A DNA stretch of 64,000 nucleotides, from the NCBI GenBank assembly GCA_030272155.1, contig CP126193.1, positions 7,068,001 through 7,132,000 on the forward strand, written 5' to 3'. Below the pieces are notes generated by a model, which was not told the DNA's origin, searched no databases, and worked only from the letters and a program-made list of their open reading frames with translations. The stretch is from Tetradesmus obliquus. Its lineage: Eukaryota > Chlorophyta > Chlorophyceae > Sphaeropleales > Scenedesmaceae. Positions 2,010-47,816 of the stretch are shown in pieces. Numbering within the stretch: the first letter of the stretch is position 1; each line of letters opens with the position of its first letter. The translations under genes and the position numbers were made by a program.

Positions 2010-2014
2010 CACAG

Positions 2015-6743: not shown

Positions 6744-9700
6744 ATGGCGAGTGCCGCAGTAGACAAGCGCATCGAAAGCTACAGGCGTATCTCTATTTAC
6801 GGCACCAAGTCCAGGCTGTACGTAGTTGGGCACGATGAGCAGCTCGGAATATGTAGAATACTCAAGTTCAGGAGGCAGGATGGTCCTCGCCTGGACGTGG
6901 TGGAGGATCCTCTCGTGTACACTCCAGAGCAGTGCACCCTGGTGCTCAGGAGGGTGCACGAGCAGAGCGGGGGCCTGCAACTGATCAGCAAGGTAACAGC
7001 GGAGTTAACCCGTCTGAAAGATATCTCATGTGATTAAATTGTTGACCTGCTGGTGGTTTGGGCTAGTGCAGCACGCATCAAGTACTGTTGCTGCTGCTGC
7101 TCCTGCTGCTGCTACTGCTGCTGCTGCTGTCATGGCACCCGTCACAGCATTGCAAACTTTTCAACCACCACTTCAACATCTGGCTGTGCGATGACATGGC
7201 TCGCTTCAAAACTAATTGCACCCCTGTACGCTGCAGGCAGGCCAGCAAACACAGCAGCAGAAGGGCCAGCATTTTGGCCCTGCACGCACGCACTGCAAGC
7301 GCAGCAGCAGCCTCCTGCTCTGGCACCTTGTATCAACTGCTGCTGCTTTCTGTTTGTGTATCTGCACTGCTGTTGCTGTTGCTGCTGCTGCTGCATTCCC
7401 TGCAGGGCCATGGCATCATTGGCTGCTTCCGCTTCACAGACAGCTACTATCTGCTGGTGGTGGCGAGGCGCGAGTATGTGGGGCACATCTGCGGTGGGTG
7501 GCAAGCACAGCCACTTGCACAATCTCATACACACAGCACATGCATTCTCCTGCAATGGCCTGCGCAAAGTTGTTTCTTATGCTGTTTGAGGAGGGCCACC
7601 CAACAAAGGGCGCATGCGCAGATGCTGCTGCATCATCAAGTGCGGATGTGCAATACAGTGCCATAGCAGTGGCAGTTGCCGTAGAGCAGTAAACAACATG
7701 TACTGCAGTGCAGCGAATTGCATGGCAGCTTTAAAGCATGCATTCATCATGTGCTGCTTGCACTGCAGGGCACCAGGTGTACCGCCTCGCAGAGACCTGC
7801 CTCATCAGCCTCAGCGCTTCTTGTACTGCTTGTACTGCTTGTACTGCTTGGGCTGCTTGTACTGCAGGGCACAAGGTGCACCGCATCGCAGAGACCTGCC
7901 TCATCCATGTATTGCTTGCACTGACTGTACTGCTTGTACTGCAGGGCACAAGGTGTATCGCATTGCAGAGACCTGCCTCATCAGCCTCAAAGCCTGCTTT
8001 TATCAGTTATAAGTACTATTATGTGCTGCTTGTACTGCAGGGCACAAGGTGTACCGCATTGCAGAGACCTGCCTCATCAGCCTTAGTGCTTCACAGCAGC
8101 GCATCGACATGGCGGCAGCAGACAGCACAGCAGAAAAGCGGTGCGTGTCTGGCTGCGATTTCATGTCTGTTCATGGACTGTTGCACGCCATTCATATATA
8201 TACAGCAGCAGCAGCAGGGATAACTTCTGCAGCAATGCACCTTAGGCATGTGCATCACACATGTGCGTCCATACAAGGCTGGTCTAAACACTGCAGCAAT
8301 ATGAGGTTCAGCTTTGGCTTGTCTCACAGGCAGAAGCCAACATGCAAACTCCACCGGCAAGTGCTCATCAGCGACTGCCGCTAATTGGAATGTTTGCTGC
8401 GGCCTGCAGGTACCGCAAGCTGCTGCTGGGTGTGGACCTCACCAAGAACTTCTTCTTCAGCTACAGCTACAGCCTGGCACACACGCTGCAGCACAACCAC
8501 CAGCAGGCAGCAGCAGGCGCGGGCCATGCAGCAGCAGCAGCAGCAGCAGCAGACCCCAACTCCAGCAGCAGCAGCAGCAGCACAGCACACGTGGCAGCTG
8601 CAGACGCTGCAGCAGCAGCAGCAGCAGCAGCGGTGGGTTGGGACGTGTACGACAGCAGCATGTTTGTGTGGAACGCGTACCTTACGCGGCCGCTGCGCGT
8701 GGCGATTCAGAGCGGCAGGTGGACGCTGCCGCTGGTGCATGGCTACTGGGAGCAGCGCCAGGTGAGGACGCACAAGTATGCAAAAGTTTGGAGGTGCAGC
8801 GCCAAGTGAGGCACAAGTATGCAAGGGTTGGGTGGTGCAGCGCCGAGTGAGGCACATGTGTGCAAGGGTTGGGTGATGCAGCTCCGAGTGAGGCATAAGT
8901 GTGTAAGGGTTAGGTGGTGCAGCGCCAAGTGAGGCACATGTGTGCAAGGGTTGGGGTGGTGCAGCGCCAGGTGGAGCATCAAATACACGGCTACTGGGAG
9001 CAGCGCCAAGTGAGGCACATGTGTGAAAGAGTTGGGGTGATGCAGCGCCAAGTGAGGCACATGTGTGCAAGAGTTGGGGTGGTGCAGCGCCAGGCGAGGC
9101 ACATGTGTGCAAGGGTCGGGTGATGCAGCGCCAAGTGAGGCACATGTGTGCATGGCTACTGGGAGTAGCGCCAGGTGAGGCACAAGCGTGCAAAATTTGG
9201 GCGGTGCAGCGCGAGGATGCAGTTTTAGTGTGCAAGGGGTTGGGTAGTGCAGCGGCAGGCGAGGCATGGGATGCACGGCTACTGGGAGGTGCAGTGCCAG
9301 GTGAGGCACGCTGACTGATGGTCACTGGGAGCAGCAGAGATGGGCAGCGCCAGATGTGATGCATGTGTGATTGCTCGCAGCAGTTGCAGGTGGACGCTGC
9401 CGCTGGTGCGTGGGTACTGGGAGCAGCGCCAGGTGAGGCGGCACACTACAGGCATCAATGATCTGCCTGCACTGCACTGCATGCCTGCACTCATGCAAGA
9501 GGCTGCATGCACGCACACCAGGGGCTGTGGTCAGCTGCTTTGTGCGCCGCAGTTGTCTGGCACCTGCCCAATCATTGCATGCTGCACACCACGCTTCATG
9601 GCCATGTGCCACCCAGTCTGCGGCTGCTTGCTGCACATTTTCAACTATGTAATTGATTCCTTCATATGTTCAGGTATCCGTGTTTGGCCGCGCGCTTACG

Positions 9701-12700
9701 CTGACGCTGCTGGCAGCCCCAGAATGCTTTCTTTATTCCTTTGTTCATTCGTCCCTCGTCCATTCATTCAATCATTTCAGTCATTCAGTCAATCGTTCAT
9801 CTATTCTTTCCTTCAGGTGTCTGTGTTTGGCCGCGCGCTGACGTTGACGCTGCTGGCGCGCCGCTCGCGGCACTTTGCCGGCACGCGCTTCCGCAAGCGG
9901 GGCTTGAGCAGCGCGGGCTTTGTGGCCAATGAGGTGGAGAGCGAGCAGATTGTGGACGCGGGGATCGACTGGGCCACGGGGCAGCCGCTGTGGTCGGCAA
10001 TGGTGCAGGTGCGTGGCGGCAGCTTTTTTTTTACGGATTGATAACATTGCATGAATATGCAAGCGCAGAGCTAGAATGGTGCAGGGGTGTGCCGGCGGCT
10101 GCTTTGAGGGATTAATGACAATGTTACACTAGTGCAGCTAAACAGGCAATCTGTGAAGTTGCAACAGACTGAGCAGCGCGGGCGTTGTTGTGAATGAGGT
10201 GGAGAGCGAGCAGATTGTGGACGCGGGGATCGACTGGGCCACTGGGCAGCCGCTGTGGTCAGCCATGGCGCAGGTGCGTGTTTGCATATGATTTGGAAGA
10301 GCTGATGGCATAAATCGTGTGTAGCATCGCAGCATGTGCTGAGCAGCGTTTGTAACAGTTTGGGTGTTGGTCGACTGCTGGTCAGCTTGCTCAGCTGTGG
10401 CCAGGCGCGTGTTGTGGTGTGCTGTTGTGTGGTGCGTCACGCTTGCTTATTTGTGCTGGTTACCTGGACTCAGGCCCTTCCTGACGCGTGTTGTGTGGCG
10501 TGCTTGTGGTGTGCTGTGGTGTGCTGCTGCAGGTGCGCGGCTCCGTGCCGCTGTTCTGGAGCCAGCAGACCACTGCGCTCAGCCCCAAGCCTGACATACT
10601 GCTGCAGCAGTTTGACCCCGTGTACGAGGTGAGCTGCAGGCTGCAGATTCATAGCAACAGCAACTATAATCCCTGCACAGCTGTTGCTTTTATATGTTAT
10701 ATGTTGGTTGTGCTACTCAGTGGTGCATGCAGACATGTGTACGTGAGGATCCGCACGCTCGGCCTGTGTGTTCAGAGACATTTCCGTTGCATCTGCAGCC
10801 GGAGATCACAGCTGTGGTCTGAGTTCCTGGTCTCGTCTGCTGCGGGCGCTGCTGCAGAAAACCGCTGCACATTTTGCCGACATGCGGCGGCGCTACGGGG
10901 ATCCCATCATGGCACTCAACCTGCTGCGCAGCAAGGAGCGGCGGTGAGCGGCAGAACTCTGCAATTGCATTGATGAATTGATGCAATGCCTGCATAATTC
11001 GAAATGGCATCATGGCACTCAGCCTGCTGCGCAGCAAGGAGCGGCGGTGAGCAGCGCAGCGCTGCGAGCACACGTGATTCTTGGACATGTCAGCTCGGCT
11101 GATGATAGCAAACATGTCGACCCTTTCAACCAGTCTCCAACATGTAACCGCTCAACAGCAATTTACTACCTGCACCCCAACCAAAAGATGCACACCCTTC
11201 CATGCATGCACGCTGCCAGGCCGCGCGAGGTGCGGCGCGAGTATGCGGTGGCAGTGGACCTCACCAATGCGGGGCTGCTGCAGCAGCAGCCAACAAACAC
11301 AACATGCGGTCATACTGCCTGCCTTCAATTCAAGCAGGCATGCACTGCTTTACTCTGGCTCTCCACACCCCTGCCTTCTTCACGCATCTCCCCACCCTCC
11401 CTTCCCCACAATGCACTTGTCTTCAACACTCAACTCACACCGCACCCCCGCCAGGCCGCGCGAGGTGCTGCTGCGGCGCGAGTATGCGGTGGCAGTGGAC
11501 CTCATCAATGCTGGGCAATGCACTTCAATCAGCCAAGCAAAACACAGCATGTGGCCATTCTGCCTGCCTTCATGTCAAGCATGCATGCACTGCTTCACCC
11601 TGAATCGCCACACACGCAGCCACAGCCGCACCTACAGCCACCCGCTGTTAACCGCATCTGCCCACCACTGCTCGCACCTGCAATTACTGCCAGGCCGCGC
11701 GAGGTGCTGCTGAGGCGTGAGTATGCGGTGGCAGTGGACCTTATCAATGCGGGGCTGCCACAGCAGCAGCACATCGTGTACATCCCATGGGGTGAGCAGC
11801 AGCAGCAGCATGTGGCAGCATTCGCGGCAGCGGCAGCGGCAGCAGCAGCACATTGTGTACATGCCCTTGGGTGAGCAACAGCAGCAGCAGGAACAGCGAC
11901 AGCAGCAGCAGCAGCAGCCCATCGTGTACATCTTCAGGAGGAGCGGCAGCAGCAGGAGAGCAAAAGTTGGGCAGGAGCTGTAGGCAGACAGGCTTGCAAA
12001 GGGAGGCAAGCAGGCAATGCCAGGCTTGGCAGATGCACACAGGAGCGCGTCACGTCACCGCAGAAGCTGCATGTGTGCACACAGACACACCATGCTACTG
12101 CTGCAGCACATATCCTCGCAAGCGCGTGTGCAACTCCTGGTCATGAATCTCTTGTCTGCTCGTAAACGCTGTTCTTCTTCTGCATCCCTGTTTCTGCTGC
12201 TCAGACTTCTCCAAGCACGCAAAGCAGCCTGGGGCCAACATCCTGCTGGAGCTGGCACCCATCATGAGGCTGTGCCTGGACAACTCAGGTGAGAGTTTTA
12301 GAGGGTGAGAGAGTGAGAGGGACTGAGAATGAGTGAGAGTGTGTGAGAGCAACCTGGCACCCATCTGAAGCGGTGCCGGGACAACTCAGGTGTGCACGGC
12401 TGAGAAAGAGTGAGACAGCAAGATGTTGTGAGACACTCAGTATGCTGAGTATGAGAAAGAGTGAGACAGCAAGATGTTGTGAGACACTCAGTATGCTGAG
12501 TATGAGAAAGAGTGAGACAGCAAGATGTTGTGAGACACTCAGTATGCTGAGTATGAGAAAGAGTGAGACAGCAAGATGTTGTGAGACACTCAGTATCAGC
12601 GACAGCAAGATTGAAGGATAGTAGGAGGTAGCCGAGAGATAGCGTTGCTGTGTAGGACCATCGTTGCTTGGCAGCAGTGCGACCAGCTCTGCAGCGCAGG

Positions 12701-15700
12701 CCAAACCTGGCACCCGGCTGCTGTGTTTGGGCCACAACCATCATCAGCAGCAAGCCAGAGCAGCAACATTGTGGTGTGTGCTCAGCTTCTCGAGCAACAC
12801 ATAACAGCACGTAACAGCATACTGTTTGTATGTGTGTCCTTGCAGGCATCTACGTGCACGGCCCTGCCTCCTGCAGCTCCTGCCAGGCAGCAATTCAGGC
12901 ACGCCTGGGCAGCCGCAGCCACCCAGCAGCAGCAGCAGCAGCAGCAGATCCAGGCAAGGAGTCCGGCACCAGCACAAAGCAGCAGGCCACACCATGCCAC
13001 CACAGCAGCTCAGCAGCAGCAGCAGCACCTGGCAGCCTGCAGCAGCAGCAGCAGCAGCACCAGCCAGGCTCCGCCGACGTCCTGACAGCCAGCCAGCAGC
13101 AGCCGCAATCATTAGCCGGCTTCCCCAAGCAGCGTCACTTTGCACCAACCACAAAACTGCAGCGTGGCGTGCTGCGCACCAACTGTATTGACTGCCTAGA
13201 CAGGACCAATGTAGCGCAGTTTGCATATGGCCTTGCTGCTTTTGGGGCGCAGCTGGCAGCGTTGGGTGCGTTGGGGGAGGAAGAGGGTGGCGTGGACAGT
13301 GACAGCAGCATTGCGCTGCAGCTGATGGAGATGTATGAAGGCATGGGGCACACCGTCGCACTGCAGGTAGGCTTGAAATGATTGTCCGCATATTGGGGGT
13401 TTTGTGCTGGTCTTGCTGCCTTTGGGGCCCAGCTGGCAGCGTTTGGGGTGCTTGTGGATGAGGAGGGAGGTGTTGACAGTGACAGCAGCATTGCACTGCA
13501 GCTGATGGAGATGTACGAAGGCATGGGGCACACAGTTGCGCTGCAGGTAGGCTTGAAAGGTTGTGTTTTCAGGCTCGGAAATCGTACTTTGGTGTACAGA
13601 ATTAGGTTTTTGTGCTGGCCTGGCTGCGTTTGGGGCACAGCTGGCAGCGCTGGGTGTGTTGGGGGAGGAGGAGGGAGGTGTTGACAGTGACAGCAGCATT
13701 GCACTGCAGCTGATGGAGATGTACGAAGGCATGGGGCACACAGTTGCGCTGCAGGTAGGCTTGAAAGGTTGTGTTTTCAGGCTCGGAAATCGTACTTTGG
13801 TGTACAGAATTAGGTTTTTGTGCTGGCCTGGCTGCGTCTGGGGCACAGCTGGCAGCGCTGGGTGTGTTGGGGGAGGAGGAGGGTGGCGTGGACAGTGACA
13901 GCAGCATTGCACTGCAGCTGATGGAGATGTACGAAGGCATGGGGCACACCGTCGCACTGCAGGTAGGCTTGAGATGAGTGTCCGCACATTGGTTTTTGTG
14001 CTGGCCTGGCTGCTTTTGGGGCGCAGCTGGCAGCGCTGGGTGTGTTGGGGGGAGGAAGCGGGTGGCGTGGACAGTGACAGCAGCATCGCACTGCAGCTGA
14101 TGGAGATGTACGAAGGCATGGGGCACACCGTAGCACTGCAGGTGAGCTATTTTGATTGTATTTTGGGGCTTGGCATCCGTGAATTTGTGCACACAGAAAT
14201 CAGGTTTCTTGTGCTGGCCTGGCTGCTTTTGGGGCGCAGCTGGCAGCGCTGGGTGTGTTGCGGGAGGAAGAAGGTGGCGTGGACAGTGACAGCAGCATTG
14301 CGCTGCAGCTGATGGAGATGTACGAAGGCATGGGGCACACCGTCGCACTGCAGGTAGGCCTGTATAAACTGGGTTGATGTGCCTTTCTACTGGGGTTGCT
14401 GTGCTTTTCTACTGGGGTTGCTGTGGCTTTGTCAGCTGATGAAGATGTATGAAGGCATGGGGGCACACAGTTGCGCTGCAGGTGAGGCACACGCTCATTG
14501 TGTTTGAGCGGTGATCTTCGTGTCTCCTGTGCTCCTTCTTGGCTGTGAGTGAAGTATCAATGCGTCACTGTCACCTTATCGGATGTCGGAGGACAAGTGG
14601 CTCAGCGCGGCTGCTATAACTGAGGGTTTCTTTTTGTGCGCTTCTCGATTACCTCCACGTCACTGGCTTCACCTGTAAGTGCGGAGCAGCCGTTGCTGGC
14701 TGCAATGTCACAGCATCATGCGCAGTTAGGAAGAGTCTGCTGATGCCATCAGGACACTGTGAGCGTGTGGTCCAGTTCCTCCAATGCAGCTGTGACCTGG
14801 ACAACAAACAAGGTTCTATGCGACTGCCCGCTCACCCTGCCCTCAACCTGCCACCTGACTTCCTGTCGGTCACCGCCGCTGCTGCTGCTGCCTGCAGTAT
14901 GGAGGCAGCGAGGCGCATGCCGCGTTCTTCCAGAAGAAGCGTGGCGAGTGGGAGGCCACCACACAGTCACGGGACCTCATGACTTCCATCAGGTGGGTAG
15001 CTTTTCAACAGCCTGTGTGACACGGCAGATGATCACTTGCTGTTGAAGACAGCGACAGCGCCTACATGGACGCCTCAAAGCAGGACGCCATCGAACCGAC
15101 CTTACTCGACACCCTCACCTGCATGTATATGTTTCTGTTCGTTTTTCTGTTGTTGCACCGCAGGCGCTTCTACAGCAACGCATACACTGACGCTGAGAAG
15201 CAGGACGCCATCAACCTGTTCCTGGGCAACTTTGTGCCCAGCCCCGCAGCGCCGCCGCTGTGGGAGCTCAGCGACGACTACTACCTGCACAGCGGTGAGC
15301 AGGGCTTGTGCAGTTCTGACCTTGCGGCCAGATTACTGTCAAAGCGGCTTGGTTCGTGTTAACACGTGGTGCAGGTTCACGGCGATTGATCCATACATCA
15401 TACAGTGCAAAGCTCAAGAGCAGTTGGTTCAGAGCACCTGCACAGGCCAGCAGCAGGAGTGGAGTCTTGTTGGAGACTTCACTGCATTATGGTTGTAGCA
15501 TGCAAGCGCTGTGGGAGCTCAGCGACGACTACTACCTGCACAGCGTTGAGCGCCGGGGCTGTATACTTCCAGTTTTAGAGGGCCAGATCACGGTATGAAG
15601 CCTTGATTCATGCTTTGATGATGTACTGCACTGGCAGGCAGCAGGAGCAGATGTTAGGATGCCCATGCATGGGCGCACCTACACCCATCCAGGGATGGCT

Positions 15701-18700
15701 TTGCATGCTGCAGTCTTTGTTGCAGCTCATGGTATTCATGTTGCTGTCGTGTGCCCGCAGATGCTGCCATCCGCTACAGCCAGCTACTGCCAGCGCCAGC
15801 AGCAGCAGCAGCAGCGCCGCCGCCGGCTGGCTCCACCATGACTGCAGGGGGCCGCAACGCCCCTGTGATCATTCGGCAATTGTCAGCGACAACGCTGCCG
15901 CCTACTGCATTCGGATTCGGCAGCAATGTCAGCAGCGCTGCCGCAGCAGCACTTGCGCAGGCCGCGTCAGGCCCATCATCTGCTGCTGCAGCAGCGGCAC
16001 ACACTGCTGGCAGCCCTAGCCCAGGTGCTGCATGGATCAGCGGCAGCAGCGGCAACGGCAGCGGCAGCAACTACAGCAGCAACAGCCCGTTTGCGGCGCC
16101 TGCTGCAAACTATGCAGCTGCTGCAGCTGCCAGTGGCATACGGGCCATCAGCAGCCGGCCCAACAACAGCAGCAGCAGCAGCAATGCGGCAGGTAGGGTC
16201 AGCACGCCGCTGCTGCCGCTAACTTTCTCAGATGGCATTTCATTAGATGCTAGCGAGGCAGAAAGCAGCCCAAATGCTGCAGATGGTGCTTTCAACTTCA
16301 AGCATGTCTTCCAACAGATGATGTCAGCAGCTGATACAGTGCCAAGCGCTCCAACAGAGCAGCACAGCAACCTTGTAAGTTTTGATAATGTGCTTGCAAA
16401 GCTCCCCCGCAACAGGCCGGTGCGGCTGTACCCTGTTACAGCCAGAAATAACGGTGTTATGTGGGAGGCCGTGCAGCAGGCGTTTGCATTCTTCAGCACA
16501 GCAGATGGCGTGGCAGATGGGGCAGCTGCTGGCAGCTCTGCAGGCGCTGTTGCTGCTGCTGCTGCTGCTGCATCGCCTGCTGCTGCTGGATCATCCATCC
16601 AGAGTTTAGATCTGACGCAGCAGGCAGCTAGGCGCCTGCAACAGCAGGCGCCTGACAGCCCCGCAATCGCAGGCAGCAGCAGCGCGGGCATTGCACAATC
16701 AGCAGCAGCAGCAGGTGCGGCTCCAGGCCTTACAGCTGGCTGGGCTTCTCCTGCTGCTGCTGCTGCTGCTGCTGACTCAGCAGCTCAAATCAGCGGCAGT
16801 AGCATCAGCAGCAGCAGCTTTGGAGCTACCTCAGCAGCAGTAGCAGCAGGCATGGTGTCAGTAGACCGGCTCAGCATGGAGTCTCCCAGTGCAGGGGCCG
16901 CCAAGGCAGCTGCAGCAGCTGCTGCTGCATTCAGTGTGATTGGCAGTAGCTTGGGTGCAGCAGCAGGGCTGCGGTCTCCACCTGGGCCTGCTGTGTCTGG
17001 CTTGAATGACATATTAGAGATCCGCACTGATGTGCAGCCGGTGCGCATGATCAGCCAGCCACACAAGCCGCCACTGGTGAGTGCTTTTGAGGTTGTAAGC
17101 ATAAGAATGCTTGTTACAGTTGGTGTCAAGCGAAGACACTTGCAAACTGCAATGCAAGGCCACCACCAGACGAAGCTCTGCGCACAGCAGGCATTCCAAC
17201 TCATCACAACTGTCAACTTGATAGAGCACCAGCTGCATGTGCCAGCGCATGATCAGCCAGCCACACAAGCCGCCACTGGTGAGAGCTTTTGCGCATAACA
17301 TGTATTCTTATCAAAAGACTGTCAACTTGATAGAGCACCAGCTGCATATGCCAGCTACAGCACATGATCAGCCAGCCACACAAGCCGCCACTGGTGAGTG
17401 CTGTTGTGCAGAACAGGCATCTTAACTCATCAAGGCTGTGGACTTGATGAAGCACCAGTTGCATGTGCCAGCTGAAGCGCATGATCACCCAGCCTCACAA
17501 GCCGCCACTGGTGAGTGCTTTTGCGCACAACAGGGTATACTAATCAAAAGATTGCCAACTTGACAGGACACCAGCTGCATGCGTGAGCCACAGCACATGA
17601 TCATCTCTTTGACCACTGCTAATGCTGCCTCTGTTACTCTGCACGCCATTGGGCCGCCAGGTCCTGGCAGAACCCCACTCAATGCCTCTAGCCAGCTGTT
17701 TAAATAGCCTGTTTGACAATTGCTGCTGCTGTTGCTTCTGTGATTGTGCAGGCCATTGGGCCGCAAGCGCCAGTCAGAGCCTTATGCAATGCCTCAGGCC
17801 AGTTGTTCGACCACTGCTGATCCTGTATATTCTGCTACACTGCAGGCCAATGGGCCGCAAGGGCCAGTCAGTCAATGCCTCTGACCAGCTGTTTGACAAG
17901 CTGTTTGACCGGTTGTTGACCACTGCTGGTTCTGTTGCTTCTGTCACTGTGCAGGCCATCACGCTGCAAGGGCCAGTCAGGGCCTCAGTCAACGCCTCTG
18001 GCCAGCTGTTTATATAGCCTGTTTGACCATCGCTGCTCTGTTGCTTCTGTGATTGTGCAGGCCATCGGGCCGCAAGGGCCAGTCAGAGCCTTGTGCAATG
18101 CCTTCAACATGATGATGATGACTCAATGCCTCTGGCCTGCTGTTTGAATAGCCTGTTTGACCACTGCTGGTTCTGTTGCTTCTGTGATTGTGCAGGCCAT
18201 CGGGCCACAAGGGCCAGTCAGGGCCTCACCAGCGCGGCTGGATGCAACCTTGGACGAACTTATGTGGAGCCAGTTCGGCATCAGTGTCAGCAGCCAGCAG
18301 CAGCAGCAGCAGCAGCGGCTGTCGGTCTCCACTGCACCACCCAGCAGCAGCCAGGCCAGCGGTTTAGGGTTTCCTGGGGCGCAGCCGCACAGCCCTGGTG
18401 CTGAACCCCAGGGTGTAGCGGATAGGGTTTGGGGGACGCTCGGGGTCGTGATGCGGGGAGCCGGTATGAGTGGCAAAGGCAGCAGTTCTGTGGCAGGGGG
18501 TGCAAGTGGCAGCAGTAGGGCTGCAGGTGTTGCAATGTCACCCCTCAATGATATCCTGCAGATTGAGAGGCAGAGTGACGCTGGCAGTCCTGCTACTGCT
18601 GCTGCTGCAGCTGGCAGCAGCCAGGCTGCTGAAGCTGTCAACAATAGCAGCAGCAGCAGGGATGCTGCTACTGAAGTGCAGTCGAGCTCTTGCCGGCCAG

Positions 18701-18839
18701 GCATTGGGCGTGTCACATTTGCAGCTGCCGCTACCTCAGCAGCCGGCAGAGCATGTGCTGGCGCTGCTGCTGCTGCCAACCAGGTGCACATCCAGTCGAC
18801 AATGTCGCTGCCGCTGTCACCACGTGCAAGCACTGGTGG

Positions 18840-18880
<41 letters not shown>

Positions 18881-19071
18881 GTGAGTCAGCAGCAAGTGAC
18901 ACAGAGTGGGTGGTGCTGGACGGCCATGCAGTGCCATATGCACGCAGCGAGCTGCTGCAGCAGCAGCAGCAGCAGCAGCAGCAGCCGGATACGCCAGATA
19001 CCGCTGCCTCGGCTGCTAGCGCTTCCACAATGTGGCACAGCCCTTTCAAGAAGAGCAGACGACAACTGGCA

Positions 19072-19105
<34 letters not shown>

Positions 19106-23300: not shown

Positions 23301-24096
23301 CATGGCTGAGGCAGGCTTCCTGTCGGCACACAAGGTGCGCCTGCAACACAGCGCTGAGCCGTGTTGCAATTCAAAGCTGCTCGCACTTCTTGTGAGACAG
23401 TCTGGTTGCCTCCTACTGATGATGTGCCGCGCTGGCAGCACCTGCTATTGTTGTGCGATGGACACAGTCTATAGCATGTTACAATAACCGTGCCTGCTGC
23501 TGCTGCTGCAACAGGCAGCCCACGATTCCGAACCCAGCCACACCTGGCCCTCAGGCATCCAAGCCCTACTAATGACAGCACTCAACGTTGCATGTCCCTA
23601 AACATGCTTCCATACTCCTGCTGCTGCTGCTGCTGTTGCTGCTGAAACAGGCAGCCCACGGATCAGAGCCCAGCCACACCTGGCCCTCAGGCATCCAAGC
23701 CCCTCTGACTATTTCCTGTTTGAACATGATATGTTACATTAATCCTGCCTGCTGCTGCTGCTGCTGTTGCTGCTGCTGCAACAGGCGGCCCACGGCTCCG
23801 AGCCCAGCCACACCTGGCCATCAGGCATCCAAGCTCCTCTGATGGACGAAGGCGAGCCACATTGCGCTGACTATGTGTATGCGTGGCAGGCGCCAGGCTA
23901 CCAGCTGCTGGTCACTGCTGCACAGCTGTGCGGTGATCAGCCCTCTGAACAGGATGCCACGCTGTATCCCAGTGACCACATTGGCATTAAGGTAAAGCTG
24001 CGGGTGGTGGCAAGCAGCAGCAGCAGCGGCGGTGGCAGCGCTGCACAAGGTGATGCTGCTGCTGGAGCAGCGGCAAAGCCTAAAGCTGGGTCCTGA
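20310..24096 (+). CDS. Endonuclease/exonuclease/phosphatase (EEP) family hydrolase
   Basis: Six exons, 20310-20925, 21361-21499, 21781-21873, 22240-22711, 23203-23334 and 23785-24096, join in phase to 587 residues. The EEP (DNase I-like) fold is marked by VSVVTFNIRG (Asn171), CFQEVL (Glu202), NTHLD (424-428), TGDLNAPPDE (Asp461, Asn463) and YPSDH (Asp548, His549), which are the usual metal-binding and catalytic positions. Family members hydrolyse phosphodiesters in nucleic acids, sphingomyelin or phosphoinositides; the substrate here cannot be told. Residues 1-155 are basic and Ala-rich with hydrophobic stretches (90-140), which may be an organelle presequence or membrane anchor. A Ser/Gly-rich insert (about 305-345) interrupts the domain. 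Two introns contain tandem exon-start copies. Confidence 0.85.
22958..23260 (+). repeat. Three copies of EEP exon 5 start
   Basis: A GCAG acceptor, then GCAATTTGCGGCTGGATGGA and GGGCAGCTGCGCAGGCATCG up to ATGACTGG, starts at 22958, 23081 and 23203 (spacing 123 and 122). The first two end in ACTGGCAACAATTGTCAC where the true exon continues with GGGGACCTCAAT. They therefore stop just before the catalytic GDLN codons. Confidence 0.92.
23515..23848 (+). repeat. Three copies of EEP exon 6 start
   Basis: A CTG-rich tract and ACAG acceptor, then GCAGCCCACG and CCCAGCCACACCTGGCC and TCAGGCATCCAAGC, starts at 23515, 23651 and 23785 (spacing 136 and 134). Only the third continues into the YPSDH exon. 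Confidence 0.92.
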
Positions 24097-24345
24097 ATAG
24101 AGGGAGAGCCGCATTGTGCTGACTATGTGTACGCATGGCAAGCCCTAGGCTGCTGGTCACTGCAGCACAGCTGTTTGGCGACAAGCCCTCGCAACAAGAT
24201 GCCACGCTGTAACCCAGTGATCATATTGGTATCAAGGTAAAGCTGCGGGTGGTGGCAAGCAGCAGCGGCGGTGGCAGCGTAATTGGGCAGGGTGATGCAG
24301 CAGCTGGAGCATCTGGGGCGCCTGAAGCTGGGTCCTCAAAATGAG
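24097..24345 (+). pseudogene. Decayed duplicate of the last EEP exon
   Basis: Directly after the stop codon, the segment from GAGCCGCATTGTGCTGACTA to GAAGCTGGGTCCTC repeats 23850-24096. It has lost a base or more in the CCAGGCTACCAGCTG region, and the TATCCC of the catalytic YPSDH stretch has become TAACCC (a stop). It cannot encode a functional exon. It is probably part of the 3' UTR or beyond it. Confidence 0.85.
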
Positions 24346-26050
24346 GTGATTTAGGTTAGCGCTCCTTGGGCGGGTCCTGGTCACTTCAACTTTGTATAAC
24401 ATAACTGTTGCGGTGGTGCAGTCTGCAGCAGCCACAGCTGCGCGGCGATTGTCGGTCATATGTCGTGGCGGTGTTGTGGTGGTTGGGTGGGGTTGTTTGC
24501 TGGGCGGAACATGTCTGCTGGGCGGATGCATCTGCCTGAAGCAGCCACAGCTGCGCGGCAATTGTCGTGGTAATGTTGTGGTTGTGTTGTGGTGGTCAGG
24601 TGGGGTTTGGTCGTGTAAGTGCCGGCGTGGCGGATGGCATCTGTGTGCACCCCTAGGCAGCTGCAAGTGCTGCCCCCAGCTGGCTCTTGCAGGAAACGTG
24701 ATATGATGGAGTTGCTGCAGGTTGCACAACGGTGATGCTCACATCACTAGCTTGCAGGCGTCACCAGCAGGATTGCGTGTGAATTGGTTTGTGGCACAGC
24801 TGCAGCAGCTTCAGCCAGATTGTACAACAGCAGGTCAGGCGTCGGATACTTTGTGTGTAGCTGTGCAACTCATGTCTGCATTGGTAGCCACAGCGCCAGC
24901 AGGCAGTCATGATAGGGGTGTTGTGGGCGCATTGCTGATTTGGTTGTTGCTGCAGCGTTGATTGGCTGCACGCCACACAGCCGGCTATCATGGTGTTGGT
25001 GGTGTCCCCATTGATCGCTGTCACAGCTGGCAAGCAGCACTGCAGTATGCCAGCTTGTGCAGTGCCCCAACTTTGGCAGTTGAAGCCAGCAATGCACAGC
25101 AACGCCGGTGGAAGGTTCAGAGCAGGCAAGCTGTGTTGGCAATGACACCGGATCAATGGTTGTGTGGTTTTGTTTGTGGCATGTCCGCTCGTTGTTTGCT
25201 GCTTACAACAGAGCAGTATGTTGCAGCAGCATGTACATATAGTATGACAAGTGTACTGAGTAGCGTTGAGCTTTGTGTGTCACTCACCCAGGCCGACCTG
25301 CAGCAAATGGGCGCCTTGCGCCCCATTCATTGTGTGGTGCCGCAGTGGTTGTCCACGACAAGGCTTGGATAATATCTACAGCAAGTGATGGTGCTGCATC
25401 CAGCAACTGCTCCTCAGGCCAGGCTGGCAACTTGTCTTGACGTCACTGGCAACCTGCTGTGAATGGGGTGGCAGATTGAACGCTGCAGGCATGTATCAGA
25501 GCTGCAATGCATGCCGCTGATACTCGAAGCACGCATGCTTGCAGTCAGCATGCCATGGATATTGCGTCGCGCTGTGTCACCCTTCAAATGCACAGCATAG
25601 GTGCAAGCATGTGATCCAGAGTTGCTGCAAAGAAAGCAGCAGCGCGTCGAATTCATTGTAATCAATGGAATGCTTTGGAGCCCCACCGACGTGCCGTTCC
25701 AGCATATCAGCACGGAAACTGCGGCGTCACCACAGATGAGGCTGCAAGTGACAGCAGCGTAACCAGGGCTCATTTTGCCGCAAGATGTTTGGGTTCAAAT
25801 GAACACGCACGTCACGTTTTCTTGATTTTGTCTAATTTTGTCATTTCCAAAGGCTGAGGAGCGACCGATCTTCAACCTGCTCTGCGCGGCATTGAGTCAC
25901 AGATCTTCGCGCTTGATAGACAGCAACCACGCCCGGTGCCGACCTGAAGACGCGACCCGAACACGAAAATGGCATCAGCGGTAGGCATAACAGCTGCTAA
26001 AGCAGCACAGCGCTCGGGCATCAACACAGGTACAGCACCTCTCACATGCC

Positions 26051-26092
<42 letters not shown>

Positions 26093-26122
26093 TTCACTGC
26101 GCTGCAGCCTCCGAGCCTCGAC
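24346..26122. other. Intergenic stretch with an imperfect direct repeat
   Basis: No gene recognised. GCAGCCACAGCTGCGCGGC and the following GT-rich 50 bp occur at 24426-24495 and again at 24539-24608. Open frames at 24962-25372 and elsewhere lack recognisable domains. A short ATG-led segment at 25969-26029 ending in a good GTACAG donor may be a 5' leader exon of the F-box gene, but its phase does not fit the next frame. A CTG run (13 or so units) lies at 26053-26092. Confidence 0.5.
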
Positions 26123-28514: not shown

Positions 28515-29711
28515 CAGCTGGTGCCCAGCAGCACATGGAAGGGTTGTAGCAGCGCGATGATTGCTGGCTGAGGCATCAGAAATGGCAGCCCCTCGGGCGG
28601 CGGTGATGCCTGAGCACATTGGAAATTGCAATGAATTCAAATGCGTCAGCTTTCGCGTGCCTGTGCTGGCTGCGCATGCCTTGTGCAGTGTTGCACGTAT
28701 GTGTAGGGACTGGGCCTGGGATCTACTTGAAATCACCAGGCTAGTGAGCAGCAACTGCACTGGGCAGCTACTTATCATGCCATTGCAGGGCAAGCTCTTT
28801 TGTTTATCCCCGTGTTTGTTGTTCCCGGCTGCCGTGGCTGTTGGCTGAGGTTATCTTTTGGCAGAAGTGCACCCACGTGGGACCAGCAAGAGAGTGATGA
28901 TGGGTGAAATGCATTCCTCTATCAGCCTTGGTGCCCTCTTTTACCGTATCAAAGCTATTTGAATATCGATATTTCAGCGAATACGCACAATCGCTGGCGT
29001 CAGGTGGCTTAAACAAGTCAGACCGTGACTTAAGCCTTCACTACTATCTCCTACTCGTTTCACGAAAGCTTCTGCTGTACTTCTCCTCTCATTGGCTACA
29101 AACGTCTCTATTCAGCTACTTCAACGCATATCACAAGCCTTAACGCAGCTTGCCGTCTCCTTGAGACTCCCGCTAGAACTGCGGGCGTTGAGGTCAAGCC
29201 AGGTGTCCGCGCGGCTACGTTCGTCTGCTATTTGTAAAGATCTTACTACCTTCGCAAATTAAGTTGCAAGTACCGTAGTTCACGACCATTGAACTCGAGC
29301 AGCAGGAGGGCTCTGCCCGGCATGTGGGCTGCAGGCAGCCTGCAGCAAATGCGTGGCTGCAAAACTGCTGCCACTGGACATGGATTGCGGCACGTTGGGC
29401 ATTTATCCCAGCAGGTGCCATGCAGGTGGGCAGCAAAGGCCCCTTGACCAGCAACTGTATCAACTGTCTGGCAGCTTGCTAGCAGCTCAACCTTATCATT
29501 CAAATACAGATTGCTGTCGCATAGATTGAAGTCTGAAGGTGTCAAGGTGTTGCAGCTGAAGCAGCCAGGGCAGGCTTGCACAACAGGCAATCCTCCCACA
29601 TTCACCAACGCAACACAGCCCACGTGTGCAGTATGATCAGCAGACAGTGAGCACTGAATTCAGTATACTACTACTTACTCTTCATTCACTACGACCCTGC
29701 TCAACCAATCC
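28515..29711. other. Intergenic stretch
   Basis: No gene recognised on either strand. The part around 28900-29260 looks less CAG-rich than its surroundings and may be promoter or 5' flank of the gene at 29712. Confidence 0.5.
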
Positions 29712-32536
29712 ATGCAGTCATGCACTCCTCGCCACCTGACCATTTTCCTGCAAACTCTGCGCTGCTCCTGCTGCGTCCGCAGCCCCCTGCATGGCCGCAG
29801 CCGCATCAGCAGCAGGCCTGGCGCACCCAAGCCCAAGCGCGGGTCCCGCCTCATCATGTACACAGGCCTGGAGAGCTTCCTGGGCTTGTCAGCGCTGCTG
29901 AAGCCGGAGGTTGCTGCTGTGTTCAGTGCTGTGCTGGCAGTGGGCAGCGTGGGGCTCAACTATTATGGGAACCTGATGACTGAGAGCAAGCGCGTGGAGC
30001 TGCAGAAGGAGGTGCGCAGCAGGGCCACTGGCCATGTTGTCAAGTGATTTACCACAGCTGCTTTAGCACACGGCACACCTGCATGTGCCGCACATGGATG
30101 TGCCAGAGGAGGGGATCTTGCTGCGGTGCAGCTGCATTACTGCAGCAGCACATCAGCATCTGACGATGATCAATGATGATCAATCACGACTGGCCTCATG
30201 CCGCACTGACCAGCCAGAAGCAGGCGGAGGCGGTGCCGCAGGACCTGGCAGTTGCATGCTGATGTATGCTGCCGTTGTGCTCACCCGCAATGCCTTCTTT
30301 CACTTTCCAATGCCGCAGCTGGACCGCGAGAAGCAGGCTGAGGCGGTGCTGCAGGAGCTTGCAGACGCATGCTGCATGTCGCTGACCTGAAGTGGTGTTC
30401 TTGCTTGATGCTGCTGCTGCACCTGCAGCTGGACCGCGAGAGGCAGGCGGAGGCGGTGCTGCAGGAGCTGGTCGTTGCATGCTGATATGTGCTGCTGTTG
30501 CGCTCACCCGCAATGCCTTCGTTCTTTTTTCAATGCCGCAGCTGGACCACGCAAAGCAGGCTGAGGCGGTGCTGCAGGAGCTTGCAGACGCTTGCTGCAT
30601 GTCGCTGACGTGAACTGCTGTTCTTGCTTGATGCTGCTGCTGCACCTGCAGCTGGACCGCGAGAAGCAGGTGGAGGCGGTGCTGCAGGACCTGGCAGTTG
30701 CATGCTGTTGTACGCTGCTGTGGTGCTCACCCGTAATGCCTTCTTTCTCTTTTCAGTGCCGCAGCTGGACCGCGAGAAGCAGGCTGAGGCGGTGCTGCAG
30801 GAGCTTGCAGACGCTTGCTGCATGTTGCCGACCTGAACTGCTGTTCTTGCTTGATGCTGCTGCACCTGCAGCTGGACCGCGAGAAGCAGGCTGAGGCGGT
30901 GCTGCAGGAGCTGGCGTCCATCATCGCGCGCTACCGCGGCCCGCTGCTGGAGAGCAGCGTGGACCTGGAGCAGCGCCTGTGGCACCTGGCCACCATGACG
31001 GGAGAGGTGGGTGCTGGAGGCAGCAGCAGTAGTACTGGTGTAGTTGCATGTGTGCAGCACTTGGAGGAGCGCCTGTGGCACCTGGCCACCATGACGGGAG
31101 AGGTGGGTGCTGGAGGCAGCAGCAGTAGTACTGGTGTAGTTGCATGTGTGCAGCACTTGGAGGAGCGCCTGTGGCACCTGACCACCATGACGGGAGTGTG
31201 TGCAGGCAACACCAGCAGCAGCGGCAGCAGCAGCAGCAGCAGCACAGATGCAGTATTGTTGCTTTCGTGCAGCGGTGTACGGCTATGCAGCAGCAGCAGA
31301 AGGAGGCAACGCAAGCACTGGCAGCCATGAAGCAGCAAATAGTCGACAGCTGCGACACTTACCTGTCTGTACTGCAACGTTTGCTGTTGATTTGCGTCAA
31401 ATTACCCGTGCGCAACCCACACCTAATGCTTCCTGTGCCGCACGCGCGATGTGTGTCGTGCTGCTGCTGCAGTGGTACAAGGCTGAGGACGTGCTGTGTG
31501 GCGAGGAGATCGCATACACACTCTTCACTCTGGCACAGGTGAGCTGCATGTCGCTGCTGCCGAATGGTGTGGCATGGTATGTGGATCCAAGCGCCATCTC
31601 ATTGAGCAGGGGTGGCCCTGTTGCAGCTGCAGTGCATGTGTGCTCGAGGTGGGCCCAGTGCAGCCGCATTGGTTTCCAGCAGCGCTGACACCGGAAGCAG
31701 AGGTGTTGACAACATCATACCATGTTATACGCACCTCCTGGTGCAAGTCCGTCATCAGCAAGATCATGACAGCGACCGCCTTGCTGCGGTCACCGCTGGA
31801 GGTGGTGCGTCGCGAGAGCATGCCAGCCATGATCTTTTATTGTCATCTTGAAGTCCAAGTGTCTCAACTGCCTGGCTGCTGTCATGTTTCAATATGCAGT
31901 TCCTGGGTTTTCTCGAAGTGGTGCGCCGCGAGGGCCCGCGCGAGCGCTCCTTCCTGGCGGCAGGCAACCCGCAGGGCAGCGACACACTGGCCACACTGGT
32001 TGAGAGCTTCCGCTTTGTGCTGTGCGCCAGCCCGGCAACACTGCAGGTAAGAAACTATGAATCAGATTCATAGTACAACAACCGACTGTGTGATACGCGT
32101 CAAACAAACGATTTCAGACACGTGTTTCAGAGGGTACCTGCAATGATGCTGCTGCCGTATGTTTGTATGTAGGGCTGGCTGGACGAGGCGGATGAGCTGT
32201 GCGACCGCTCATGGGCGAAGCGTTTGTTGATGTATGATCAGGACGCATGTATAACTCTGCTGCATCTTCTTCTGTTGCTGCTGTTGCTGCTGCTGCTGTA
32301 CGCTTGTGTGTAGGGCTGGCTGGATGAGGCGGATGAGCTGTGCGGCCACTCATGGGCGAAGCGTTTGTTGATGTATGATCAGGACGCATGTATAACTCTG
32401 CTGCATCTTCTTCTGTTGCTGCTGTTGCTGCTGCTGCTGTACGCTTGTGTGTAGGGCTGGCTGGATGAGGCGGATGAGCTGTGCGGCCACTCATGGGCGA
32501 AGCGTTTGTTTGATGTATGATCACGACGCATGTAAC

Positions 32537-32570
<34 letters not shown>

Positions 32571-35482
32571 ATGCGCAGGGCTGGCTGGACGAGCCGGATG
32601 AGCTGCGCGACCACCCAGGGGCGAGGCAGCGGAAGCCCTACCAGCCAGTGAAGGGCAAGCGCAAGGCCATGACCGCAGGTGCGTGCCAGCTTCGTTGCCC
32701 TTTTGTTCCACGCGCATGGCGCGTGTTGATTGCATACACGCATCTTGGATTTAAATTTGGTGCTGCTGTGGCATGTTCGTTGTGCATGTGCAACAGTGTA
32801 GGAGAAGTCAGCAAGGAGCGCACAAGTGCAATATGTGCATGGTTCTTGTTGGCTGCATGCCAACGCCTGCAGTTGTGGCGCTGCTGTGGCTTGTTCGTCG
32901 TGCACATGTAGCAGTGTAGGACAAGTCAGCAAGATGTGCACAGCAGCTCTTGCCACTGCGCCTCAACCTGTGGCACTGCTGCTGTTGCTGCTGCTGCTCT
33001 GCAGGGCTCAAGGACGGCTCCGGGGCGTGTGTGGTGCCGCTGAGGGTCAGCAGGGGCAGCCAGCGCGCCATCGGCAGCCAGATGGGCTGCACGCCACTTG
33101 GTGAGCGAGGGGCTGTGTTTGATAACCTGCTGTACACTGCTGTTATTATGCTGGCAAGCGTGGTGCTTTCACATGCAGCACTTCACTGCAGGCTGTTGTC
33201 ATGCGCTGACGCACGCTAACTTGCTGGGCACCCGCTGCTCGTTGAAGCTTCCTGCCACACAGCATCCGATGTTTGAACGTGCCACTGTACAAACTGCTGA
33301 AGCACTGCATTCTATGCATCTGCTTACTGCATGTTCTACCTGCAGGCTCTGTGCGACACTACACACACTCTTACAGCACCTTCCTGCACTTGCTGAATCC
33401 TGCTGTGCCTCGTGCTTGAACTACCAGTTGCATGCAGGCTCTGAGCGCCACTACACGCACTCCTAAAGCACCAACCTGCACCTGCTGAATCCTGCTGTGC
33501 CTTGTGCTTGAAATACCTGTTGCGTTGCAGGCTCTGAGCGCCACTACACACTCTCCTACAGCACCTTCCTGGGCAAGCTGCAACTCACCAAACACACTGC
33601 TGTGTCTGATTTGTTGCTGGTTGCTTTCCTGCCTGCAGGCTCTGAGCGCCACTACACGCACTCCTACAGCACCTTCCTGGGCAAGCTGCAACTCACCAAA
33701 CACACTGCTGTGTCTGATTTGTTGCTGGTTGCTTTCCTGCCTGCAGGCTCTGAGCGCCACTACACGCACTCCTACAGCACCTTCCTGGGCAAGCTGCAGG
33801 CTGAGCCCGAGTTTGCGGCATGGCTGCAGCCCATCGAAGGTGACCTGGCGGCACTGCTGACGGGGCCTAGCTGGATGGGAGAGCCAGCAGCGCGCACACA
33901 CAGGTGAGGGAATTAGGGTTTAGGTGTGGGGGGTTGATGTTTTCTCCTGGCTGCAGCCCATAGAGGCCGACCTGGCGGCACTGCTGACAGGGCCTAGCTG
34001 GATGGGAGAGCCAGCATTGCGCACACACAGGTGAGGGCATGAGGGTTTAGGTGTGGGAGGTTTATGTTTTCTCCTGGCTGCAGCCCATCGAGGCTGACCT
34101 GGCGGCACTGCTGACAGGGCATAGCTGGATGGGAGAGCCAGCATTGCGCACACACAGGTGAGGGGAATTAGGGTTTAGGTGTGGGGGGTTGATGTTTTCT
34201 CCTGGCTGCAGCCCATAGAGGCTGACCTGGCGGCGCTGCTGACAGGGCCTAGCTGGATGGGAGAGCCAGCAGCGCGCACACACAGGTGAGGGGATGAGGG
34301 GTTGAGGTGCGGCGGGGGGGGGGGGGGGGGGGTGTTGTCTTTGCCGGCTGCAGCCCATCGAGGCTGACCTGGCGGCACTGCTGACAGGGCCTAATAAATG
34401 GGAGAGCCAGCTGCCCGCACACACAGGTGAGACAGATGCAGCAGGTGCGGCGCAGCAAGAAAAAATTGCCGTACCGACTGCATTCACTTTGTCCCGCCTG
34501 CATCTGCATCTCTGTCTTTGCCATTTTACCTGGAGGAGCGTGCTGTTGGTGCAGCAGCTGCTGGTGAACACCAACGACCTGCTCGGCCCTCCCACACTGC
34601 TCACCTGCGCATCTGCCCGCTGCTGCTGCCCTCATCCACATCTCCAGGTGGACGCGTGTGCTGCCGCTGCCGCTGCAGCAGCTGCTGGTGGACGCGATCG
34701 ACCGCTGTGCTGGAAACCGACTTACACTTACACTTGCCTAAACGCCCATTGCCCTGCCGCTGCATTTCTCCCTTGCCTGCGTCCTCAGGTGGACGCGCGT
34801 GCTGCTGCTGCAGCAGCTGCTGGTGGATGCAATCGACTTGCTGGACCCAGACTATGTGCGCGTGCCAGCCAACCGCCGCATCCGGCTGTCCCCAATCGCC
34901 TACGCGCCGCTGCCCAATGTGCAGCAGTACACCGCAGCGCTCACGCTGCTATCTGGCCCAATGGATGCCACACGCTTTGGAGCAGGACTTGGAGGCCTCG
35001 TAGAGCCTAAGGATGGCGAGCACTTTGCAGCGCTGCAGAACCTGCTGCACCCTGAGAGGGTGCTGCAGGCAGCCAACCAGGTGCGCAGCACGCGCGCGGC
35101 GCAGGGCAACGGCAATGGCGGCACCGGATCCACGCAGTCTGCGCAGCGCTCGCCTAGCAGCAGCGCCAATGTCAGCCCCACAAGCACAGTAGCAGTGGAC
35201 GATGAGGTGGGAGCGGCAGCAGCAGCAGCAGCATCAGGGGCAGCAGCAACACCGCCGGCTGATTCGATCATGCCGGCGTTCAAGCTGCCGAGCGTTGGCG
35301 CGACTGGCGTGCAGCTGCTCAAGGCGATCAGTGGGCAGAAGCCTCCGGCAGAGCCGCAGCTGCAGCAAGGCAGTGGGAGCTTGCATGACCTTGGAGGTAC
35401 GCCTGTTACATCAGGTGCAGTGCGTGGGGTGCCGCAGCCGGCCAACGGCACTGCCAAGAGCAGCAGCGGCAAGAGCACGTGA
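29712..35482 (+). CDS. Conserved protein of unknown function (bacteria/plant/alga-wide family)
   Basis: Eight exons, 29712-30011, 30872-31006, 31473-31538, 31900-32046, 32579-32678, 33005-33100, 33747-33903 and 34789-35482, total 1695 nt (564 residues) with all phases consistent. Residues 60-85 are hydrophobic (EVAAVFSAVLAVGSVGLNYY), a likely membrane anchor. Then come a charged helix ending IIARYRGPLLESSVDLEQRL, EEIAYTLFTLAQFLGFLEVV plus RRE, SQRAIGSQM, YSTFLGKL, and LLLQQLLVDAIDLLDP. I recall this spacing (RYRDPLL, a TLF..Q..G..E..RR helix, QRAIGE.M, a final helix with DLIDFLDP) from uncharacterised proteins of many bacteria and plants. No catalytic role is known to me. The last 170 residues are low complexity. 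The start codon could instead be a later Met. Six exon edges are tandemly duplicated in the introns. Confidence 0.72.
30206..30910 (+). repeat. Seven exon 2 start copies in an alternating two-unit array
   Basis: CAG then CTGGACCGCGAGAAGCAGGC and GAGGCGGTGCTGCAGGA starts at about 30206 (partial), 30319, 30429, 30542, 30652, 30765 and 30872. The intervals are 110, 113, 110, 113 and 107 bp. Two flank types alternate: TTTCCAATGCCGCAG in one, TGCTGCACCTGCAG in the other, so the real period is a dimer of about 223 bp. The last copy is the genuine exon. Confidence 0.93.
30957..31198 (+). repeat. Three copies of exon 2 end with donor
   Basis: GAGCGCCTGTGGCACCTGGC and ACCATGACGGGAGAG followed by GTGGGTGCTGG recur about every 96 bp (exon end at 31006; copies starting near 31058 and 31154). 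The third has lost the GAG and reads CGGGAGTGTGTG. The first two units share about 45 bp of downstream intron sequence, almost unchanged. Confidence 0.92.
32165..32640 (+). repeat. Four copies of exon 5 start
   Basis: A TAG or CAG acceptor then GGCTGGCTGGACGAGGCGGA and TGAGCTGTGCG occurs at 32173, 32314, 32455 and 32579 (spacing 141, 141 and 124). The first three are followed by CATGGGCGAAGCGTTTGTTG and a CTG-rich tract. The last, with CAG acceptor, runs on into the rest of exon 5. Confidence 0.92.
33340..33800 (+). repeat. Five copies of exon 7 start
   Basis: TGCAG then GCTCTGAGCGCCACTACACG and CTCCTACAGCACCTTCCTG occurs at 33346, 33438, 33531, 33639 and 33747 (spacing 92, 93, 108 and 108). 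The second has a stop (TAA for TAC). The two units before the last are nearly identical over 108 bp, suggesting a recent event. Confidence 0.93.
33821..34436 (+). repeat. Five copies of exon 7 end with donor, one containing a G19 run
   Basis: TGGCTGCAGCCCATCGAGGC to ACACACAG and GTGAGG starts at 33821, 33948, 34075, 34203 and about 34345 (spacing 127, 127, 128 and 142). Between the fourth and fifth lies an unbroken run of 19 G at 34314-34332, which accounts for the longer spacing. Confidence 0.93.
34529..34835 (+). repeat. Three copies of exon 8 start
   Basis: A segment with GGTGGACGCGCGTGCTG and CAGCAGCTGCTGGTGGATGC occurs near 34529, 34648 and 34788. The first is diverged (CTGGAGGAGCGTGCTG). 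The last, after CCTCAG, is the real exon start. Confidence 0.88.
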
Positions 35483-47809: not shown

Positions 47810-47816
47810 AAGCAGC

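What the first reader, a model, noticed from the sequence alone, without database searches (positions are those of the whole stretch)
7406..34835. Introns built from tandem copies of their own exon edges
In the SAC gene 10 of 13 introns, in the EEP gene 2 of 5, in the unknown-function gene at least 5 of 7, and in the right-hand MYND gene its one visible intron hold copies of the adjoining exon edge with the splice site included. Exon-start copies always precede the true exon and keep the pyrimidine tract and AG; exon-end copies always follow and keep GT. Units are about 40-240 bp and often include intron sequence. This fits repeated tandem duplication across exon-intron junctions, a route by which introns lengthen and competing splice sites or new introns arise. 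The coiled-coil, Rab and PhlG-like genes lack it.
Basis: partly seen in the sequence, partly recalled or inferred. Interest (0 to 1): 0.85.

Follow-up and report, generated by a model that had tools for sequence, protein, structure and literature searches.

The report
Introns lengthened by copied exon edges
In this green alga many introns contain extra copies of the edge of a neighbouring exon, splice site included, apparently left by repeated small tandem duplications, which lengthens the introns, offers the cell competing splice sites and seems to have misled gene annotation.

Summary
The window is Tetradesmus obliquus (17-contig assembly, C3). With frame-checked gene models, 16 of 26 introns of the SAC, EEP and unknown-function genes hold 52 exon-edge copies; the right-hand MYND intron holds one more. 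GT/AG is kept in most copies, not all, about as often as neutral drift predicts. Of 23 donor copies, 20 score as well as the weakest true donor, against 1.6% of other intronic GTs. A spliced protein of the unknown gene skips the copies; other T. obliquus proteins carry copies as in-frame inserts or start inside one.

In 270 kb from elsewhere in the genome, 39 tandem arrays touch a predicted exon-intron junction 9-19 times against 5-9 expected, depending on gene-finder setting. After allowing for short introns and slower decay of exon-anchored pairs, a true junction preference is suggestive only. Outside the window 4-6% of introns carry such an array, so this region is a hot spot. Divergence outside fits neutral copies; the SAC 114-nt units look like constrained cassette exons.

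Best reading: recurrent local tandem duplication across junctions, a known kind of event, at unusual density. Lengthening and competing sites are supported; new introns are not shown.

The parts
6744..19743 (+). SAC-domain phosphoinositide phosphatase gene, 14 exons: 6744-6992, A 7406-7493, B 8041-8140, C 8410-8761, D 9817-10008, E 10533-10628, F 10858-10943, G 11694-11791, H 12205-12288, I 12846-13366, J 14898-14992, K 15164-15294, L 15761-17076, M 18196-19743
   Evidence: one open frame for A-M; first exon by tblastn; Pfam Syja_N (SacI homology domain) E 4.9e-70 in the strain protein P0002
7769..7987 (+). three copies of exon B start (7769, 7868, 7945), AG kept
8963..9432 (+). three copies of exon C end (donor edge), partly within a 41/165-bp array
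9674..9714 (+). copy of exon D start, AG kept
10170..10273 (+). 104-nt copy of exon D end with 7 intron bases
11008..11046 (+). copy of exon F end; protein OEZ86_003334, annotated on a contig of this contig's length, starts inside it (MALSLLR)
11220..11516 (+). two copies of exon G start; the first is read as exon in strain OEZ85 proteins P0001 and P0002
11832..11871 (+). copy of exon G end (GT shifted by one base)
12354..12389 (+). copy of exon H end, GT kept
13408..14481 (+). six copies of exon I end; five contain a 114/115-nt CAG|...|GT cassette, four of them open for 38 codons
15507..15545 (+). copy of exon K end, splice site TT
17245..17510 (+). three copies of exon L end, GT kept
17752..18091 (+). 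four copies of exon M start, AG kept
20769..24097 (+). EEP (endonuclease/exonuclease/phosphatase) gene, 6 exons; introns 4-5 and 5-6 carry copies
   Evidence: Pfam Exo_endo_phos for P0201
22958..23139 (+). two copies of EEP exon 5 start (88% and 100%)
23515..23708 (+). two copies of EEP exon 6 start (85% and 91%)
29322..35482 (+). conserved green-algal gene of unknown function, 9 exons; P0122 is a spliced protein of it
   Evidence: no Pfam hit
30208..30808 (+). six copies of exon 2 start in an alternating 110/113-bp array (223-bp higher order); the first has lost AG
31059..31196 (+). two copies of exon 2 end (96-bp array); the second has lost GT
32173..32503 (+). three copies of exon 5 start (141-bp array), AG kept
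33346..33690 (+). four copies of exon 7 start (92-bp units at 81-82% and 108-bp units at 96-100%), AG kept
33948..34426 (+). four copies of exon 7 end, GT kept; a T. obliquus protein (P0121) includes one unit as a 38-aa insert
34531..34722 (+). two copies of exon 8 start (one with AC in place of AG)
62777..62903 (-). copy of an exon end of the right-hand MYND gene in its intron (source 62916-63036), GT kept

Best explanation
Short tandem duplications arise repeatedly in the DNA of this alga (13 of 17 junction-spanning units outside the window are 96-132 bp). A duplication inside an exon usually breaks the protein and is lost; one that spans an exon-intron junction leaves the message intact, because splicing can still use the outermost site, so the extra exon edge is parked in the intron with its splice signal. 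Rounds of this at the same junction lengthen the intron and build series of competing donor or acceptor sites. The parked copies mostly drift neutrally and are normally skipped; some are annotated as alternative ends, and in SAC exon I a run of units looks to have become 114-nt in-frame cassette exons. Shown: the copies, their splice-site scores, occurrence elsewhere in the genome, neutral-like decay, a spliced protein that skips them. Inferred: the duplication step itself (for example end joining of nearby staggered breaks), the selective filter, and actual use of copies in cells.
For: 52 edge copies in 16 of 26 introns. Arrays with the same anatomy in stretches picked by coordinate, in genes of which 7 of 9 predicted proteins or parts tested have Pfam matches: helicase C, BTB, O-methyltransferase, papain-type protease, VTC, CBM53, UTP20. 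In 16 junction arrays outside the window exon sides differ by 0.127 and intron sides by 0.252, a factor of two, as expected if one exon copy is constrained and the rest is free. Single decoys differ from the exon 13/16/17 times at codon positions 1/2/3. Donor copies at or above the weakest true donor: 20 of 23, against 1.6% of 774 other GTs. P0122, an unbroken 575-aa protein on contigs of at most 4051 bases, follows the spliced model past all copies. Four array queries find no second place in the genome, against a dispersed element.
Against: Inside the window the intron side of copies is far less alike than the exon side even between two copies (0.57 against 0.90), more than simple duplication with neutral decay predicts; several units stop 3-13 nt past the splice site. 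Purely intronic arrays are rarer than expected in two of five gene-finder settings, which plain random duplication plus selection does not fully explain. No RNA reads were examined.
Confidence: 0.82

Rival explanations
1. Junctions, or exons, are preferred sites of duplication, for instance because of CTG/CAG tracts at splice sites, chromatin or transcription-linked breaks; the pattern is mutational and not only what selection lets through.
For: Outside the window 13-19 of 39 arrays touch a junction against 5.9-9.3 expected in 4 of 5 settings. With periods of at least 60, 19 of 21 gene-body arrays touch one against 9.3-9.9 expected, and 12.6-13.2 if exon-anchored pairs stay visible twice as long (p 0.002-0.004), in two settings. 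The less diverged arrays (match >=83%) show 3-8 of 12 against 1.6-3.4 over the five settings, p 0.0008 to 0.22 (trim 5).
Against: In the three other settings the conditional excess vanishes: 12 of 22 against 10.1, 14 of 23 against 10.1, 8 of 20 against 8.7. Exon calls come from a home-made finder first trained on three window genes.
Confidence: 0.3
2. The copies are kept by selection as alternative exons or regulatory decoy splice sites.
For: SAC I copies vary 4/3/19 at codon positions 1/2/3 and 4 of 5 cassettes stay open with AG and GT; strain OEZ85 P0001 includes two 38-aa units that its other isoform P0002 lacks; P0121 includes one unit of the unknown gene.
Against: The other families look near neutral (16/29/34 among decoys, 13/16/17 single decoys); GT/AG are kept about as often as neighbouring bases predict; one SAC I cassette has a frameshift in this strain.
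Confidence: 0.2
3. Introner-like or other mobile elements carrying exon-edge sequence.
For: Introners are reported as found mainly in fast-evolving lineages such as green algae (passage seen, PMC9860276).
Against: Queries of four arrays match only their own locus (such searches skip very common words); each copy matches its own neighbouring exon.
Confidence: 0.02
4. Assembly artefact (collapsed or expanded repeats).
For: A few arrays are 98-100% identical.
Against: 34 of 52 copies have diverged 5-20%; other T. obliquus protein records contain duplicated peptides.
Confidence: 0.03

Closest known systems
[quoted passage not shown] part 1 of 5 of the text and passages read)
   Same: tandem duplication crosses an intron-exon boundary and inherits its splice signals
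   Different: there one duplication made a new intron; here dozens of copies lengthen existing introns and no new intron is shown
Rogers/AGGT exon-duplication model; Drosophila cases (PMC2891723, passages read); Gao and Lynch 2009 internal gene duplication (seen only as a reference; not held)
   Same: local duplication inside genes creates splice-site pairs
   Different: in that model the unit is exonic and its AGGT becomes a new intron; here units carry existing junctions
Tandem exon duplication with alternative or cassette exons (recalled, from no call)
   Same: SAC I units behave like cassette exons
   Different: the other families were defined by one splice edge only; whether they can act as full exons was not tested
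Rice tandem-duplication insertions ascribed to patch-mediated break repair (Vaughn and Bennetzen 2014, as summarised in PMC7407515, passages)
   Same: insertions of 10-1000 bp that are tandem or partly tandem
   Different: mechanism not tested here; the passage seen says nothing of exon borders

Membership tests
Tandem genomic duplication events in genes | adjacent direct copies of local sequence | tested here: met
Tandem genomic duplication events in genes | unit contains a splice junction | tested here: met
   52 copies in 16 of 26 introns; 9-19 of 39 arrays elsewhere
Intron gain by tandem duplication | a new intron absent from relatives | not tested
   no relative's DNA was available; strain proteins show inclusion of copies, not a new intron position
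Introner elements | similar copies dispersed in introns of many genes | tested here: not met
   matches only at the own locus for four arrays
Tandem cassette exons (SAC I units) | AG and GT on both sides with an open, frame-keeping exon | tested here: met
   4 of 5 cassettes, 114 nt; the fifth is 115 nt and shifted; the sixth copy is too short to hold one
Tandem cassette exons (SAC I units) | inclusion in mature RNA | not testable with these tools
   only annotated isoforms P0001/P0002
Assembly artefact | copies identical and absent from other sequence records | tested here: not met
   divergent copies; other strain records carry units

The most novel reading that the evidence does not exclude
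Tetradesmus has a duplication process that prefers exon-intron junctions (or needs exon sequence in its unit), so that introns here grow from copies of their own exon edges, giving a continuous supply of strong competing splice sites and occasional new cassette exons, at a rate that differs sharply between neighbouring genes.
Probability: 0.3. Interest if true: 0.82.

Novelty: new variant of a known kind. Interest (0 to 1): 0.62.

Why it matters
Why introns of some green algae are long is open: PMC8226300 (passages) says of C. reinhardtii and its relatives that the advantage of keeping intron lengths well above the minimum 'remains unknown', and PMC5966456 (passages) gives T. obliquus a mean intron of 462 bp against 230-302 in four other algae. 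Here is one mutational source that can be counted and dated, although introns without a detected array outside the window still average 356 bp, so it is not the main cause (setting -6.5_2). It also supplies natural series of near-identical competing splice sites in real genes for testing site choice, and it warns annotators: a protein annotated for this SAC gene starts inside a copy.

Tried and rejected
Introner or mobile-element origin: rejected for four arrays. Selection against competing sites: not seen (GT/AG retention about as expected). Idea that units are centred on the junction: exon and intron parts were listed and the idea not upheld; the spread is broad and the sample small. Retraining the gene finder freely drifted to too many tiny exons and was dropped; the settings were used instead. 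The first, ungapped codon-position count was spoiled by misregistered copies and replaced by a gapped one. Searches used 49 of the 52 copies; copies at 9009, 11872 and 34530 were left out. Rfam scan of the window: no match at gathering score. Literature: nine searches listed no paper that by title or abstract start describes this in Tetradesmus or another alga; subscription journals are mostly not held.

Full report
What the window is. The window lies at G000:C3:7068001-7132000 of a 104,662,953-base, 17-contig genome. C3 is 8,148,155 bases long, the same as the contig of two proteins named Tetradesmus obliquus, OEZ86_003334 (SAC) and OEZ86_003335 (EEP). Proteins of a second set (OEZ85) and of T. 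obliquus UniProt entries were also found.

Gene models. Thirteen SAC exons (A-M) joined from the window give one open frame ending in a stop. The EEP and unknown-function genes do the same. The first exons of SAC (6744-6992) and of the unknown gene (29322 on), and the EEP start at 20769, come from tblastn of strain proteins. For the unknown gene the model is backed by P0122, a 575-aa unbroken protein on contigs of at most 4051 bases (100% by the rounded search table; by eye it differs from the model at two residues). An unbroken frame over introns this large implies spliced RNA or a processed copy; that its source is RNA is my inference. The EEP entry P0201 (99%) also follows the model, but may be a prediction.

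The copies. BLAST of each exon against its adjoining intron gives 52 edge copies: 23 of exon ends and 29 of exon starts, in SAC 9 of 12 introns, EEP 2 of 5, unknown gene 5 of 7; with the two first introns, which show none, 16 of 26. One further SAC copy (JK) lacks the edge. Of the 24 introns in the first count, 16 with copies average 706 bp and 8 without average 305 bp (Mann-Whitney p 0.00013). The right-hand MYND gene has one copy of 127 bp at 81% that keeps GT. No local direct repeats were found between 48 and 62 kb.

Splice signals. Exact dinucleotides remain in 19 of 23 exon-end copies and 27 of 29 exon-start copies, against 19.1 and 23.2 expected if they changed like the neighbouring exon bases (a rough expectation, with identity floored at 0.5); two of the four donor misses are one-base register slips. 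With weight matrices built only from predicted introns outside the window, 20 of 23 donor copies reach the score of the weakest of ten true donors, against 1.6% of 774 other GTs in the same introns. Acceptor copies average 4.8 against 6.4 for true acceptors and -0.4 for other AGs; 27 of 29 pass the weakest true acceptor, but so do 42% of other AGs, so the acceptor threshold discriminates poorly.

Use of copies. Strain OEZ85 has two annotated SAC isoforms: P0001 carries two extra 38-aa units made from exon I copies, and both P0001 and P0002 read the first exon G copy as exon. P0121 contains one unit of unknown-gene exon 7 end as a 38-aa insert that P0123 lacks. The protein annotated on the contig of this length, P0003, begins in the copy of exon F (letters). 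These are annotations, not RNA data. In SAC I, sites variable among copies fall 4/3/19 on codon positions 1/2/3, and four of five cassettes are open for 38 codons, the fifth being shifted by one base. In the remaining families variable sites fall 16/29/34 among decoys and 13/16/17 in single decoys, close to neutral (49 of 52 copies used). The SAC I pattern could also arise if copies were taken from the exon at different times.

Genome sample. I fetched 28 stretches of 10 kb from 13 contigs at positions chosen by coordinate; one was wholly N and was dropped, leaving 270 kb. Tandem Repeats Finder with filters for low complexity, then period >=40, score >=90 and match >=70%, kept 56 arrays, 17 in the window and 39 outside. 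Repeat units were collapsed, and a home-made hidden-Markov gene finder, first trained on the three window genes, was run on the collapsed sequence at several settings (it recovers 36-42 of 48 curated splice sites, which is partly circular). Against 4000 circular shifts, arrays outside the window touch a junction 19, 19, 13, 15 and 9 times of 39, expected 9.3, 7.6, 5.9, 7.1 and 5.1, p <0.0005, <0.0005, 0.0037, 0.0013 and 0.05 (trim 5; settings -5_2, -6.5_2, -8_2, -6.5_0, -8_0). So in this sample duplicates do not ignore exon borders. Two effects favour junctions without any preference: introns are short, and a pair with one constrained exon copy diverges more slowly. Viewing the sequences and a Pfam scan of nine predicted proteins or parts, seven with hits, suggest that the stricter settings miss real exons, but I formed that view after seeing the results, so I call the preference suggestive.

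Decay. In 16 junction arrays outside the window the mean exon-side identity is 0.873 and intron-side 0.748 (four arrays with only one recognisable copy and those without exactly one junction were dropped), a divergence ratio of two, as the duplication model predicts. In the window, pairs of copies show 0.90 and 0.57, and exon-copy pairs 0.92 and 0.65 (49 of 52 copies; random 35-mers 0.38), a larger gap. Several window units share only 3-13 intron bases. Copies there were found through their exon part, which may inflate the gap; it remains unexplained.

How common. Outside the window 17 of 298 predicted introns (19 of 382 and 9 of 217 at other settings) have a junction-spanning array of period >=60. 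In the window, comparing the array list with the introns, 11 of 24 introns have one by the same detector. Collapsing removed 5,820 of 270,000 bases outside and 5,376 of 64,000 in the window. The region is thus a hot spot, and arrays explain only a small part of this genome's long introns.

Mechanism. Four array queries match only their own locus in the genome, which speaks against introners. At setting -6.5_2, 13 of the 17 arrays outside the window classed as donor or acceptor have periods of 96-132 bp. Unit lengths and tandem order fit small tandem duplications. End joining of staggered breaks is a plausible source, by analogy with rice (PMC7407515, passages), but no breakpoint test was made. 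Known precedent: a duplication across an intron-exon boundary in a potato gene (PMC4974935) and exon duplications in Drosophila (PMC2891723, passages). What is unusual here is density, recurrence at single junctions (for example unknown-gene exon 7 start with 92-bp units at 81-82% and 108-bp units at 96-100%) and the supply of strong alternative sites.

Noticed in passing
window 45288-47810: Two identical 130-bp direct repeats flank about 2.3 kb with a 683-aa minus-strand frame matching RNase H, integrase zinc-binding and PHD-finger domains and, below cut-off, the integrase core: a recent long-terminal-repeat retrotransposon piece (the label is recalled). Described only.
   Followed up: partly
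window 24100-24257: A 70% copy of part of the last EEP exon (23848-24012) lies just downstream of the stop codon, so duplication also spans a gene's end.
   Followed up: no
window 12401-12596: A purely intronic array, 51 bp x 3.8 copies, 100% identical, in SAC intron HI.
   Followed up: no
window 39163-40685: Coding tandem repeats in a long open frame, about 29-aa units containing APAPESGTTGMRRSLLQA.
   Followed up: no
window 2014-2206: 63-bp x 3.1 array right after the end of the left-hand MYND gene model.
   Followed up: no
window 11008-11046: Protein OEZ86_003334, on a contig of this contig's length, starts inside the exon F copy and lacks the exons upstream.
   Followed up: yes
L024:5126-6744: Four arrays close together in a UTP20-like gene; arrays may cluster in certain genes.
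   Followed up: partly
window 29322-35482: Unknown-function gene conserved in green algae (about 45-65% identity in many listed hits) with no Pfam match.
   Followed up: no
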